A stretch of 21,297 nucleotides of DNA, from the NCBI GenBank assembly GCA_023807065.1, contig JAJJLU010000719.1:1-21297 (forward strand), read 5' to 3'. Positions within the stretch are counted from its first letter, which is position 1. Each line of letters begins with the position of its first letter. The stretch comes from Isotricha intestinalis. Taxonomy: Eukaryota; Ciliophora; Litostomatea; Vestibuliferida; Isotrichidae. Under the pieces are notes generated by a model. That model did no database searches. It saw only the letters and a program-made list of their open reading frames with translations, and had not been told where the DNA came from. Shown here piece after piece: positions 1 through 20,874 of this stretch. The position numbers were made by a program, and so were the translations under genes.

Positions 1-24
1 AATCCCCAATCCCCAATCCCCAAT
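1..24. repeat. Telomeric repeat, CCCCAAT units
   Basis: The window begins with AAT followed by three CCCCAAT units, then turns at once into unique AT-rich sequence. C-rich strand at the 5' end is the expected orientation for the left end of a linear chromosome. The unit is 7 nt and carries a T, so it differs from the CCCCAA of Tetrahymena and the CCCCAAAA of hypotrichs. Only three units are visible, so this could be the trimmed end of a longer telomere. A terminal repeat this close to a gene (186 bp) suggests a macronuclear chromosome. Confidence 0.85.
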
Positions 25-15549: not shown

Positions 15550-17693
15550 ATGCACAGACCATTTATAATAAATAGACATTTAAATGAGCATTGGACAACA
15601 TTAAGTAATGAATATATGGCAAAAAAACTCCAAAATGCAAAACCAAAAATAAATATGAAATGTCCTGAAAGTTTTGAATTTTATAAAACTCAATTTCACA
15701 GAACCTCAGTTAGAAATAGTAAATGTAAAATATAATTTTATATAACTAACATTTATAAAAAATAATAGTAAGAGAATTTGAAATAAACAAAGATAATACT
15801 TTTTTATTTAAGCATATAATGGAAATTAATCATAATAGTTTAAAAAGACAGCAAAAAATATTAAAACCAAATTTAGATTTTAAAAATACTAATGGTTTAA
15901 ATTCAGGAACAAAAAAATTAGAAATTATAAGAGTAGCTCAAGAAAATCAACATATGTTAAAAAGAATAAATGAAAGAGGATCATATTATAATACTTCAAA
16001 ATGGGAAAAAGATTATGAAAGAGCACAATATTATAAAAGAAATCATTGTATTTATCCTTCAATTGATTTTTACAAAACTCAAAGAAATTATAATTTAACT
16101 CAAGAAAATAAACCTCATAAAACTAATTATTCCACTGGTAAAAAATATAGAACTTTTGCAGACTTTGATGCTCATGATTTTGAAGGTGTTAAAAATATTC
16201 AAAGTGAACAAAAAAAAAAAGAAGAAGAAGAAAACAAAAGAAAGAAATTAGAAGAAGAAAGAAAAAAACCTAAAAAATTATATGAAACTCAAACTCAAAT
16301 TGGAGATTTAGGAAATTGTGATGTTGAATTTTATGTTCATACTCAAAACTTTAATATTAAAATTCAATCAAAAGATTATCCTCAAAAAGCTTTTGAATGT
16401 GTATTCAATTCAAGAGAATCAATTGAAAATATTCAGAAATATTATCAAAAATATGATGAAATTATTAATGATTTAAATTATGATTCTGATGAAAATATGC
16501 TTAAATTTAATAATGAAGATAAACCTGGATTAGAATGTGTAAATAAATATATTTTTTATTTTTTTTAGAATATTGTTAAAATTTCTGGAACAGAAGAAGA
16601 GGAGGAAAAAAAAGAAGAGGAAGAAAAAGTTGAAGATAATGCTTATATTGAACCTGAAGAAAAAAGTGAAGATAAGAAAGTTGATGAAAAAGAAGAAAAT
16701 AAAGAAGAAGAAGGACAAATGCTTGAATTTAAAGATGAAGAAGAGAGAGAAGAAAATAATTTAAAGAAAGATCAAGATTTTGGGGATGCTGATGATATGA
16801 AAAAACAAGAAGAAGAAGATAAAAAAAAAATGGAAGAAGAAGAACAAGAAAGAATGAAGAAAGAGTTGGAAGAAAAATTAAAAGAAGAAGAAGAGCAGAA
16901 AAGAAAAGAAGAAGAAGAAGAACAAAAAAGAAAAGAAGAAGAAGAAGAACAGAGAAGAAAAGAAGAAGAAGAGGAACAAAAAAGAAAAGAAGAAGAAGAA
17001 GAGCAGAAAAGAAAAGAAGAAGAAGAAGAACAGAGAAGAAAAGAAGAAGAAGAAGAACAGAGAAGAAAAGAAGAAGAAGAAGAACAGAAAAGAAAAGAAG
17101 AAGAAGAAGAACAGAAAAGAAAAGAAGAAGAAGAGAATGTTGAAGTCAATGCTTATATTGAACCTGAAGAAAAAAGTGAAGATAAGAAAATTGAAGAAAG
17201 AGAAGTAGAAATGAATAATGATGAAAACAACAAAAAAGAAGATAAAGAAGAAGGAGAAGCAAATGAAGAGAAAGAAAAAGAAGAAGTTGAAGAAAAATCG
17301 GAAGAAAGAAAAATAGAAGAAAATGAAAAAGGATTAACAGAAGAAAGAAAAAATGAAGGAGAAGAATTAGATAATAAACCAATTGATGCAATATATATGG
17401 ATGAAGAAGAAAATCAAGAAGATGAATATAAACAATTAAAAGATCCCACTGAAAAAAAAGAAAATGAAGAAGAACAAAACAAAAATGAAGATGGAAATAA
17501 TAATGCTGAAATGATTAACAATAATGAAAATAATGCTGTTGATATTGAAGATGGAAATAATAATGATGAAATGATTAACAATAATGAAAATAATGCTGTT
17601 GATAATGAAGATGGAAATAATAATGATGAAATGATTAACAATAATGAAAATAATGCTGTTTATAATGAAGATGGAAATAATAATGATGATTAA
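15550..17693 (+). CDS. CFAP97-like ciliary protein with repetitive acidic tail (3 exons)
   Basis: I join 15550-15718, 15769-16538 and 16569-17693 into one 687-residue protein, removing introns of 50 nt (15719-15768) and 30 nt (16539-16568). The splice at the first intron rebuilds the CFAP97 pattern: LNEHW...KLQNAKPKINMKCPESF, then, across the join, EFEINKDNTFLFKHI. A second, similar block follows (QQKILKPNLDF ... IIRVAQENQHMLKRI), so there seem to be two CFAP97-like units. CFAP97 proteins are axonemal or ciliary. The C-terminal half is Glu/Lys-rich: nine 9-residue units (Q[KR]RKEEEEE, about 423-502) and a 20-residue EDGNNN..MINNNENNAV unit repeated from 620. The middle (from about 250) is charged. 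The start ATG is preceded by an A-run. Confidence 0.8.
15719..15768 (+). other. Intron 1 of the CFAP97-like gene (50 nt)
   Basis: Starts GTAAATG, has an ACTAAC branch-point-like hexamer at 15745-15750, and ends AATAATAG. Without removal the frame stops at 15735. With removal the frame runs into the downstream ORF with no stop and restores a conserved motif (EINKDNTFLFKHI) across the junction. Confidence 0.8.
16539..16568 (+). other. Intron 2 of the CFAP97-like gene (30 nt)
   Basis: Starts GTAAATA, ends in a T-run plus AG. Its length is a multiple of three, and its last bases form the in-frame TAG that would end the protein at 16568. Splicing joins ...PGLEC to NIVKISG... in frame. Confidence 0.85.
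16629..16679 (+). repeat. 51-bp direct repeat, copy 1 (VEDNAYIEPEEKSEDKK)
   Basis: Copy 2 is at 17139-17189, exactly 510 bp later, and differs at only 2 of 51 bases. Both are in frame in the CFAP97-like tail and flank the 27-bp minisatellite, one at each side. Confidence 0.9.
16896..17135 (+). repeat. 27-bp coding minisatellite, nine units
   Basis: Nine units of CAG-AAA/AGA-AGA-AAA followed by five GAA/GAG codons (the last unit has four). It encodes QKRKEEEEE or QRRKEEEEE, a highly charged helix. The third-base and K/R variation lets the units be told apart. Confidence 0.95.
17139..17189 (+). repeat. 51-bp direct repeat, copy 2
   Basis: 49 of 51 bases match 16629-16679. The change is GAT to GTC in the third codon (D to V); the remaining codons are identical. 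Confidence 0.9.
17487..17690 (+). repeat. 60-bp coding tandem repeat, three units plus a partial
   Basis: Exact 60-base period, at 17487-17546, 17547-17606 and 17607-17666, then a partial unit ending at the TAA. Each encodes EDGNNN[AD]EMINNNENNAV plus two variable residues. Only a few point differences separate the units, so the expansion is recent. Confidence 0.95.
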
Positions 17694-17878
17694 TTAAAAA
17701 ATGAAAAACAATTATTTTAAATAATTTAGACTTTTTTTTTAAAATTAAAAAATAATAAAATAATAATTATTATTAATAGAAAAAAAAAAATAATTCCAAA
17801 AATATCAAAAAAAATTAATATATAACCCAATTAAAATCCAAAAAATTAAAAAAATTTCATATAAAACTCAAAAAAAAA

Positions 17879-18835: not shown

Positions 18836-20874
18836 ATGGAAAATGAAGTTTGGGAAAAATATGATAAAATGGGAACAATGGGAACAGGTGCTTATGCTCA
18901 TGTTTATAAAGCAAAAAATAAAGAAACAGGAAAAATATATGCAATTAAAGAAATAGTTAAAAATGATAATGAAGATGCAGTAAAAAAAGAAGCTGGAAAG
19001 ATGAAAGAATTAAAATCAAATAATACAGTTTGTTTTATAGATTTAATTGAAACAGAATTTCATTTTTATATTATTATGGAATTTTGTTTATTAAATTTAG
19101 ATGATTATATGAAAATAAGAAATGAAGCTTTATCTATAGATGAAATAAGAGAATTATTAATTCAATTAAATAATGCTTTTAAATTATTAAATGAAAAGAA
19201 ATTAATACATAGAGATTTAAAATTATCAAATATATTAATATCAATTGATAAAATAAATAATAAACCTATATTTAAATTATCTGATTTTGGTTTATGTGAT
19301 ACTATAGATGAAAACTCAAAAACAAATGCTTTGGGAACTCCTTTAACAATGGCACCAGAAGTTTTTGAAAGTGGAAATCCATCTCTTAAAAGTGATTTAT
19401 GGAGTTTAGGAATAATTATTTATAAACTTTTTTTTATGGAATATCCTTTTAATGGAAAAACAAAAATTAAATTAAATCAAGATATTCATTCTAATTGTGA
19501 TAAAATAAAAGTAATAAAAGATCAAGATTTAAATAATTTAATCAGACAATTAATATGCATCAAAACTGAAGAAAGATTATCTTGGGAGCAATATTTTAAT
19601 CATCCTTTTTTTAAAAATAATAAAAAAGATATTAAAAAAGAAGAAATAATTGAATTTCCTAAATTTGATTTTAAATGTAAAATTCACTCTGAAATAATTG
19701 AAAATTATTGTACTATTTGTAAAAAAAATTTTTGTAAAAAATGCTTGGATTTGCATTTAAATCACAAATATATTCCCTTGTCTCAAATTGGAATTACTAA
19801 AATTGAAATGGATAAAGCTAATAAATTATATCAGGATATTAAATTTAATTTAGAAAAAATGGAAAAAATGAAAGATAATATAGAATTAATTCTAAATAAT
19901 ATTAAAATTAATGAAAACAATCAAATTATTTATCAAAATGATGTTGAAAATAATTTTAAAAATTATTATTTGAGATGTTTAGAAACCATTAAAAAAAAAT
20001 CAAATATTGAAAACAATATAAATTTAATTGATATTTTTAATTATCCAAAATGCAATGAGAGAGTTGAGGTTGAATTGTAAAACATAATTAACTTTTTTTT
20101 TAGTTGGTATAATTTTACATAATATATAGGGAGTATAATTATAAAAATTAATAATTAGTGAGTAAAATATTATAATTTTATAAATAGTTTGTAAAAATAA
20201 TATAATTATATAGTGAGTAAATTAATAATTAATAAATAGAGGGTAAAATAGAAAAAATTAAAAATAGAAAGTATAATAATATTTATTATTATTTAGTAAG
20301 TAAGAAATTAATTAGAAATTATAGAGAGTAAATTTATTATTTTAATTAAAATAATGCCTGTATAATAATAAATAATTAATTAAATAAAGCAAGTTTAATA
20401 ATATTTATATTCATCTAGGATGTTAGACTAATAAATAATATTATAATAGGATGTAAAAATTAAATTTATTAATAAGATAGTGGGTATTTATAAATTTTTT
20501 ATGATAGAATGTAAACTATTTAAATTATGAGTTTATAGTGGGTAAGATATAATATAAAATTATAAAGTTTGTAAAAATAATATTATTAATTCTCAAGAAA
20601 CTCAGTTTTTATAAAAGAACATTCTTTTTTAGAAAAAGATGGTTTGAAAATAACTACTTATAATGAACCAAATAAATATATTGAATTTTATTTAAAATCG
20701 AATAAAAACACAAAATTTAAATTAGAATTATATGATTATTTAGGAGTGAAAAAAATATCCTTTAACAAAATAAATCTAAATGAATCTTTCATAACCACTC
20801 TCCAATCAAAATCTTTACTATCCTTTCCAGGATTATATGGTTTTGTTGAAATGTTGAAAAAAATAATAAAATAA
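18836..20874 (+). CDS. Ser/Thr kinase with B-box zinc finger; 3' part split by microexon array
   Basis: A predicted 522-residue protein from exon 18836-20076, seventeen 3-nt exons, and exon 20598-20874. Kinase domain about 9-262: glycine loop GTGAYAHV (16-23), K38 in YAIKEI, HRDLKLSN (D127), DFG (D150), GTPLTMAPE and the WSLGIIIY helix. All catalytic residues are intact. The kinase resembles the ULK/CAMK-like group. A B-box 2 zinc finger follows (C281, H284, C292, C295, C300, C303, H307, H310), then a coiled coil (about 323-385). After the array comes a region of about 105 residues (NSVFIKEHSFLEKDG to the end) with no recognised domain. Kinase plus B-box fusions are, as I recall, common in ciliates. 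The gene model depends on the splicing of the array; unspliced translation ends VEVEL-TAA at 20080, a 414-residue product. Confidence 0.75.
20077..20597 (+). other. Array of 18 mini-introns and 17 three-nucleotide exons
   Basis: Introns: 20077-20103, 20107-20129, 20133-20158, 20162-20187, 20191-20213, 20217-20239, 20243-20267, 20271-20296, 20300-20324, 20328-20356, 20360-20389, 20393-20418, 20422-20449, 20453-20480, 20484-20507, 20511-20538, 20542-20567, 20571-20597. All start GT (mostly GTAAA or GTATAA). All end AG (mostly TAG) except the tenth, which ends TG. Lengths 23-30 nt. The 17 bits between are 3 nt each: TTG at 20104, GGA at 20130, TGA at 20159, TTT at 20188, TGA at 20214, AGG at 20240, AAA at 20268, TAA at 20297, AGA at 20325, CCT at 20357, CAA at 20390, GAT at 20419, GAT at 20450, TGG at 20481, AAT at 20508, TGG at 20539, TTT at 20568. 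All introns are phase 2, so every codon is split. The joined product reads FWDDFEGNKDLKMIGIGL with no stop and meets the downstream ORF in frame. Confidence 0.85.

What the first reader, a model, noticed from the sequence alone, without database searches (positions are those of the whole stretch)
20077..20597. Seventeen consecutive 3-nt exons between 23-30 nt introns in a kinase/B-box gene
What is seen: for 520 bases the sequence repeats the pattern [GT...TAG] NNN [GT...TAG] NNN, with exactly three bases between each acceptor and the next donor. The intron parts are almost pure A/T, while the triplets carry most of the G and C. Joined, the triplets read FWDDFEGNKDLKMIGIGL with no stop, and the frame runs into a 92-codon ORF (20598-20874) with normal codon composition. 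Unspliced, the region has stops throughout and the gene would end at 20080. Other genes in the window have ordinary GT-AG introns of 30-50 nt, so the intron size is plausible for the organism. Inference: a stretch of this gene has been divided almost codon by codon. Exons of 3 nt are far below normal exon size, and a serial run of 17 would demand splicing purely by intron definition or an unusual mechanism. I know of no described equivalent.
Basis: partly seen in the sequence, partly recalled or inferred. Interest (0 to 1): 0.98.

Follow-up and report, generated by a model that had tools for sequence, protein, structure and literature searches.

The report
Genes split codon by codon
In a genome that is very likely that of a gut ciliate, stretches of many genes, and nearly all of one small gene, are written as three-letter pieces, one codon each, separated by tiny AT-rich intron-like spacers about 26 letters long; the spacers are predicted to be cut out of the RNA one after another so that the protein is joined up amino acid by amino acid, which would be the most extreme splitting of genes that our searches could find.

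Summary
At 20077-20597, 18 AT-rich GT-started spacers (23-30 nt) enclose 17 triplets; one acceptor is ATG, not AG. Similar sequence matches on 44 contigs; I read arrays on 28. The strict 3-nt pattern occurs 556 times in 57 Mb (reversed control 12; 4-nt version 0). In the C1364 gene model, 66 sense codons and the stop codon are each an exon.

The triplets are coding. All 23 locus-strands with strict chains have a stop-free phase (0 of 5000 shuffles match). Eight arrays begin alike (WELRCxxC...); with the Cys codons left out, codons are 0.61 identical at matching places against 0.34 elsewhere, spacers 0.62 against 0.60. One of three held-out arrays reads FWKGE. Five array contigs have telomeres at both ends, so this is very likely macronuclear DNA of a trichostome (rumen-type) ciliate. 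U1 and U5 genes are present.

Most likely mechanism: serial splicing by the ordinary spliceosome through intron definition. In several arrays near-identical introns flank unrelated codons, so introns seem copied without codons; unit duplication also occurs. No RNA evidence was available; that is the decisive gap.

The parts
1..24 (.). telomere repeat (CCCCAAT)n at the contig end
   Evidence: same repeat reported for trichostome ciliates in PMC11316547 (passages) and PMC6211341 (whole text)
18836..20076 (+). first exon: protein kinase domain and B-box; ends in phase 2 (GAA TT|)
20077..20597 (+). array of 18 AT-rich intron-like spacers (23-30 nt) and 17 three-base exons
20104..20106 (+). first 3-nt exon (TTG); completes the Phe codon TT|T, which is F in 6 of 6 models of the family
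20328..20356 (+). intron 10, whose predicted acceptor is ATG instead of AG
20357..20359 (+). 3-nt exon CCT, the least certain unit; skipping it keeps the frame
20568..20570 (+). last 3-nt exon (TTT)
20598..20874 (+). last exon: C-terminal domain NSVFIKEH..., matched at ten other places on nine contigs; none of those matches reaches upstream through the array region

Best explanation
In this gene, and in arrays read on 28 contigs of the genome, a stretch of protein-coding sequence is broken into consecutive three-base units by AT-rich GT-started spacers of about 26 nt, and these spacers are predicted to be removed one by one from the pre-mRNA by the ordinary spliceosome, acting through intron definition, so that the codons are joined in frame. 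Shown: the arrays, their 3n lattice, their coding content, their place on telomere-bearing contigs, and U1 and U5 genes. Inferred: the organism (a trichostome ciliate macronucleus), splicing at RNA level, its order, and the proteins made. Because each internal exon is 3 nt and the introns of an array share one phase, skipping any unit would cost one amino acid and never the frame. Inferred origin: copies of an intron spread between neighbouring codons of a reading frame, because in several arrays near-identical introns flank unrelated codons; duplication of whole intron+codon units also occurs.
For: Spacing. Stop-free phase in 23 of 23 locus-strands with strict chains (22 of the 29 sources examined; the other 7 had no strict chain of 4 or more introns), 49 stops in the other two phases together; shuffles gave a mean of 6.8 and never 0 in 5000. 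Eight arrays whose exon ends in W[E/G]L[R/K] or GLR, 8 of 8 of such models: leaving out the two Cys codons that my motif search required and counting only codons that are exons of their own, codon identity 0.610 at homologous (n=195) against 0.339 at other positions, 0 of 2000 permutations; introns 0.619 against 0.604 (with the Cys included gave 0.630 against 0.324). Third triplet position in phase-0 arrays (A .45 C .02 G .07 T .46) matches third codon positions of window ORFs (A .46 C .03 G .07 T .45); in phase-2 arrays the GC-poor position moves to the first base. C1364 model: 66 single-codon exons plus its own stop exon, four CxxC motifs. Held-out arrays: 3 of 3 have a stop-free phase, 1 of 3 reads FWKGE. 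Of 240 listed database relatives, 36 end at WELR or within 5 residues of it (28 exactly), 5 more run 7-17 residues past it, and 13 end in W of the QRW/EFW/RCW type, as expected if gene callers stop in the first intron. Telomeres at both ends of C2, C18, C21, C72, C94. U5 with loop CGCCTTTTACT, and U1. Intron copying.
Against: No RNA, cDNA or peptide evidence. None of the proteins listed (120 each, of 757 and 1236 matches) is seen to be a spliced version, and a search with one array protein found nothing. No contiguous, array-free copy of these domains was found in the genome (the latter without a positive control). Some predicted sites are non-canonical: 15 of 804 acceptors TG and 4 of 804 donors GC in my models. 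Gene models come from a hand-tuned script; on reversed sequence it still made 1 model with 13 three-base exons (against 28 models with 722 on the real sequence). Five of 29 sources gave no model with 5 or more three-base exons (L048, L053, L184, L188, L190; L048 and L053 do have strict chains) and several models (L039, L046, L050, L054, L056) do not form a convincing whole gene.
Confidence: 0.88

Rival explanations
1. The array is a non-coding AT-rich minisatellite, removed as one long intron; its splice-like ends are decoys and the triplets are never translated.
For: Units in some arrays are near-identical tandem repeats (mean intron identity up to 0.91 in L057). Skipping the whole block keeps the frame in the window gene. 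In the window family the array interior varies in length and sequence.
Against: Triplets, not spacers, are conserved between eight arrays; 23 of 23 locus-strands are stop-free in one phase; codon-position composition follows the phase; the C1364 gene would have almost no coding sequence; a held-out array encodes FWKGE.
Confidence: 0.05
2. The spacers are internal eliminated sequences: the arrays are germline DNA, or excision failures, and the spacers are removed from DNA during macronuclear development, not from RNA.
For: Ciliates do remove short AT-rich sequences from DNA (general knowledge); interconversion of introns and IESs has been proposed (PMC1805493, abstract). Sequence alone cannot fully separate precise DNA excision from splicing.
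Against: Of 14 array contigs whose two ends I saw, 5 (15-90 kb) carry telomeres at both ends and 9 at one. No array-free version of the window gene was found in the assembly. Borders in the models are GT..AG (800 of 804 GT, 789 of 804 AG), and neighbouring triplets are on average hardly more alike than distant ones, so there is no direct repeat at codon scale.
Confidence: 0.05
3. Serial single-codon exons are real, but arrays grew by tandem duplication of whole intron+codon units, so that proteins lengthened one residue at a time; introns were not copied separately.
For: L186 carries TTA TTT GAA three times in a row; codons after near-identical introns are the same in 13% of pairs against 2-11% in less similar pairs, and in L051 and L056 such pairs have more similar following triplets than the array average (0.53 against 0.39; 0.46 against 0.39). 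Linker length varies between paralogues. Duplication alone explains the 3n lattice.
Against: Of 570 intron pairs at least 95% identical within an array, 87% are followed by different codons; in L055, L057 and L058 triplet identity in such pairs is at or below the array average (0.35/0.36, 0.48/0.46, 0.46/0.51). CxxC spacing is fixed across paralogues although an intron is present or absent inside it (CCT|AAT in L047 and L054 against CCT AAA in L049).
Confidence: 0.3

Closest known systems
Schistosoma micro-exon genes (PMC10526429: start of abstract in the search listing)
   Same: many short exons in series, down to 3 bp
   Different: there exons vary from 3 to 81 bp and introns reach 5 kb; here nearly all array exons are exactly 3 nt and introns about 26 nt; different organisms and proteins
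Single 1-nt and 3-nt microexons in plants and animals (PMC4674806, abstract and introduction; PMC7392893, start of abstract in the listing)
   Same: exons of 1-3 nt can be spliced
   Different: isolated exons there; here runs of up to 66 in one model, plus a predicted conserved 1-nt exon at the start of the WELRC arrays (8 of 8 loci)
Tiny introns of ciliates (Stentor PMC9505925, start of abstract in the listing; Nyctotherus PMC2633312, title and start of abstract)
   Same: very short introns in ciliates
   Different: no series of single-codon exons is mentioned in the listings I saw; the papers were not read
Introner elements (Amoebophrya PMC7789003, passages) and proliferating stwintrons (PMC8469720, abstract)
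   Same: similar introns multiplied within a genome
   Different: those spread to many gene positions, in Amoebophrya with inverted and direct repeats; here copies are packed one codon apart within one gene, without direct repeats at codon scale
Internal eliminated sequences of ciliates (general knowledge; PMC1805493, abstract)
   Same: short AT-rich insertions in coding sequence of a ciliate
   Different: arrays lie on telomere-bearing contigs and have GT..AG borders

Membership tests
spliceosomal GT-AG intron | GT donor and AG acceptor | tested here: met
   800 of 804 GT, 789 of 804 AG in my models; the model rewards these ends, but the pattern and spacing counts do not use the model
spliceosomal GT-AG intron | a spliceosome in the organism | tested here: met
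   U5 on C17 (73.2 bits) and U1 on C831 (72.6 bits), both over Rfam's cut-off; the other snRNAs were not sought
spliceosomal GT-AG intron | removed from RNA | not testable with these tools
   no transcript data at hand; no spliced protein seen among those listed
microexon | internal exon of a few nt with coding content | tested here: met
   coding content by comparison and phase
microexon | included in the mRNA | not testable with these tools
   no transcript data
micro-exon genes of Schistosoma | homology to schistosome MEG proteins | not tested
   no comparison made
introner element | near-identical intron copies | tested here: met
   mean within-array identity 0.77-0.91 in L051, L055, L056, L057, L058, L186 against 0.62-0.68 shuffled; not met in the window's own array (0.64 against 0.60) and near background in many others
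introner element | target-site duplication (tested at the scale of one codon) | tested here: not met
   adjacent triplets are on average about 0.01 more alike than all pairs over 27 models (my mean of the rows)
introner element | terminal inverted repeats | not tested
   no search made
internal eliminated sequence | absent from macronuclear DNA | tested here: not met
   present on contigs with telomeres at both ends; that these are macronuclear is an inference
minisatellite / non-coding tandem repeat | whole unit conserved, including the triplet | tested here: not met
   triplets vary while spacers are alike in the young arrays, and the reverse holds between paralogues

The most novel reading that the evidence does not exclude
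A new mode of intron spread: introns that copy themselves in register, one codon away from the last one, until a reading frame is turned into a string of single-codon cassettes. Since every cassette can be skipped without loss of frame, one gene could yield a cloud of length variants, and codons could be lost or gained one at a time in evolution, in often subtelomeric families of kinase, protease and B-box proteins.
Probability: 0.4. Interest if true: 0.97.

Novelty: new variant of a known kind. Interest (0 to 1): 0.93.

Why it matters
If transcripts confirm it, splicing must work accurately across dozens of 3-nt exons in a row, which leaves no room for exon definition and little for exonic signals; it would set a new limit for what a spliceosome can do and make intron definition testable in its purest form. 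Arrays that look young (near-identical introns) and old (fully diverged introns) in one genome would also give a rare view of intron gain in progress. In practice such genes are easily missed: of 240 relatives listed from the protein database, 49 end at or within 5 residues of the place where an array would start.

Tried and rejected
Looked for array-free relatives of the zinc-ribbon-like domain: in the own genome with one 28-residue query (nothing at E 10, no positive control), in the protein database with one array protein (no candidate) and with a three-row alignment of protease + array proteins (a motif check of the listed proteins found no LRCxxC and no other sign of the domain). Looked for the window protein in spliced form: the same gene in the database covers 79% and ends at the array; a BLAST of the array and last-exon part against the 120 listed proteins gave, besides the three that end at the array start, only weak matches (best E 0.003, filters off), which I take as compositional. 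Telomere scans of IMG/VR and GTDB contigs were not examined beyond their listings.

Rejected: duplication of intron+codon units as the only origin; a 3-nt target-site duplication. A first stop test on single short chains was too weak (sum of minima 0 against null means of 1.35 and 2.30) and was replaced by the locus-level test. The first conservation test counted the two Cys codons on which the loci had been chosen; it was repeated without them and the result stands. One search used 12 loci picked mostly for alike introns, of which 8 held pairs at 95% or more. A list of 46 'ordinary introns' from my script is unreliable, because many have lengths divisible by three inside open frames, and is not used.

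Literature: eight searches of the open PMC library listed no paper that, from title and start of abstract, describes serial single-codon exons. bioRxiv and most subscription papers are not held, and long hit lists were cut at 20, so prior description elsewhere cannot be excluded.

Full report
What was checked. The window is contig C519 (21,297 bp) of a 57.3 Mb assembly in 2153 contigs. One search confirms 18 spacers and 17 triplets at 20077-20597. Joined in the phase of the upstream kinase/B-box exon (Pfam Pkinase and zf-B_box), the triplets read FWDDFEGNKDLKMIGIGL and lead into NSVFIKEH... at 20598-20874. One spacer (20328-20356) ends in ATG; the strict chain is therefore 9 plus 8 units, against a maximum of 4 in 2000 Markov shuffles of the region. 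Within the window alone, the lack of stops is not striking (2761 of 20000 shuffles).

It is genome-wide. A DNA search with the region gave 84 matches. The strict pattern of spacers around 3-nt exons occurs 556 times, its reversed control 12 times; with 4-nt exons 0 times, reversed control 13. Together the matches and the roughly 100 places printed (of 556) name 44 contigs; I read arrays in the sequence of 28 contigs, 25 of these 44 and C506, C545 and C1561, while three fetched relatives (C1149, C1907, C1074) gave no model with 5 or more 3-nt exons. In 20 loci (130,754 bp, both strands) the distance from TAG to GTA is 3 in 544 cases; most other short distances occur about 20 times, with some excess at 6 (38) and 9 (31), and more again at 29-30, about one unit. 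My gene-model script, run on the window and 28 loci, made 28 models with 5 or more 3-nt exons (722 such exons) from 24 of the 29 sources, against 1 model (13) on reversed and 0 on Markov sequence.

The triplets are coding. (a) In 23 of 23 locus-strands with strict chains of 4 or more introns (22 of 29 sources), one reading phase of the joined triplets has no stop, while 49 stops fall in the other two; base shuffling within loci gave a mean of 6.8 and never 0 in 5000. (b) Eight models have an exon ending in WELR, WGLR, WELK or GLR just before the array, and all eight go on with CxxC. Leaving out these two Cys codons (on which I had picked the loci) and counting only codons that are exons of their own, codons at homologous places are 0.610 identical (n=195) against 0.339 elsewhere (0 of 2000 permutations), while introns are 0.619 against 0.604; 9 of 72 identical amino acids use different codons. 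All eight share a predicted 1-nt exon (A) before the first Cys codon. (c) GC content dips at the codon position predicted by the phase of the array, and in phase-0 arrays (383 triplets) the third position has the composition of third positions in window ORFs. (d) The C1364 gene (L055) is modelled from ATG to TGA with 67 exons of 3 nt after a 9-nt first exon, the last being the stop; it encodes four CxxC motifs (raw sequence) and has no Pfam match. The model uses a GC donor and a TTG acceptor there. (e) Three arrays not used before (L336-L338) each have a stop-free phase in their chains, and one reads KFWKGEKEPF.

The window family. The C-terminal exon is matched at ten other places on nine contigs; the matches begin between residues 31 and 43 of the query, the array covering 25-42, so none passes through the array as one open frame. 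In the models of the family the first array residue is F in 6 of 6 (window, L043, L183, L186, L187, L189) and the stretch after the array starts with N in 6 of 7 (not L183). Between these fixed ends the array encodes 8 residues in L187, 18 in the window and 27 in L189; L043, L183 and L186 models mix 3-nt and longer exons. The window array thus most likely encodes a variable linker, whereas the zinc-ribbon-like arrays encode a conserved domain start. Other array genes carry trypsin-like, kinase + B-box or B-box N-terminal parts; three of nine tested have no Pfam match.

Organism and nucleus. Contig ends carry (CCCCAAT)n, also at the start of the window. The same repeat with the standard code is reported for Muniziella cunhai (PMC11316547, passages), and the same repeat for Entodinium caudatum (PMC6211341, whole text). 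Of 14 array contigs with both ends seen, C2, C18, C21, C72 and C94 have it at both ends and 9 at one end, so arrays sit on complete chromosomes of 15-90 kb, as expected for a macronucleus. That this is a trichostome ciliate is an inference; the species is not known. Several arrays lie within a few kb of a telomere (C18, C21, C72, C398, C439, C545, C570), others do not (C2, C94).

Mechanism. U5 with the usual loop CGCCTTTTACT and U1 are encoded. The spacers have the length of tiny ciliate introns, and introns of this size are, from general knowledge, recognised as units across the intron. Splicing from 5' to 3' would always leave a long upstream exon, so a 3-nt exon need not be recognised by itself. 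All of this is inference; no RNA was available. Other assemblies agree on the array borders: of the 240 relatives listed from the protein database end at WELR or within 5 residues of it (28 exactly), 5 more run a little past it, and 13 end in W of the QRW/EFW/RCW type, as a read-through of TG|GTAA would give.

Origin. In some arrays (L055, L057, L058, L051, L186, L056) introns are 0.77-0.91 identical to each other; in many others, the window included, they are near the shuffled level. Among 570 intron pairs at least 95% identical within an array (8 arrays), 13% are followed by the same codon (2-11% in less similar pairs); in L055, L057 and L058 triplet identity is at or below the array average or within 0.02 of it, in L051 and L056 clearly above it. 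Copying of introns without their codons explains most of this; repeated codons in L186 show that unit duplication happens too. Intron presence differs at the same codon boundary between paralogues (CCT|AAT in L047 and L054, CCT AAA in L049), so single introns seem to come or go without change of the protein. Why the register is always three bases is not explained: it may reflect selection for frame-neutral skipping or the copying mechanism itself.

Exceptions. GC donors (4 of 804), TG acceptors (15 of 804), and models that break or read through (L039, L046, L050, L054, L056) remain; some arrays may be decaying, and right after the stop codon of C1364 the next donor is lost.

Novelty. Isolated 1-3 nt exons, schistosome micro-exon genes, tiny ciliate introns and introners are known; a coding stretch cut at every codon was not found in eight literature searches of open PMC papers, with the limits stated.

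Noticed in passing
window 16807-17134 and 17484-17707: In-frame 27-bp and 60-bp tandem repeats inside one acidic, low-complexity ORF (EEEEQKRKE-type and NNNENNAVDNEDGNNNDEMI-type units).
   Followed up: no
G000, 88 matches: Large family of kinase/B-box proteins: some members continue in one long ORF (650-1000 aa), others have open frames of about 400 aa; several of the latter lie next to an array.
   Followed up: partly
L055 4900-6921 (+) and 60-1249 (-): Contig C1364 carries two arrays on opposite strands: the single-codon gene with four CxxC motifs and a gene reading WELRCKNC.
   Followed up: partly
L193 (IMGVR_UViG_3300010998_001116, 3253 bp): Filed as viral but has (CCCCAAT)4 near one end and its reverse complement near the other, like a telomere-capped ciliate minichromosome.
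   Followed up: no
L249, L255, L273: Small contigs in bacterial MAGs with the ciliate-type telomere repeat near their tips; possible eukaryote contamination.
   Followed up: no
L042 4453-5904 (-): 484-residue N-terminal part of an array gene without any Pfam match at E 0.01.
   Followed up: no
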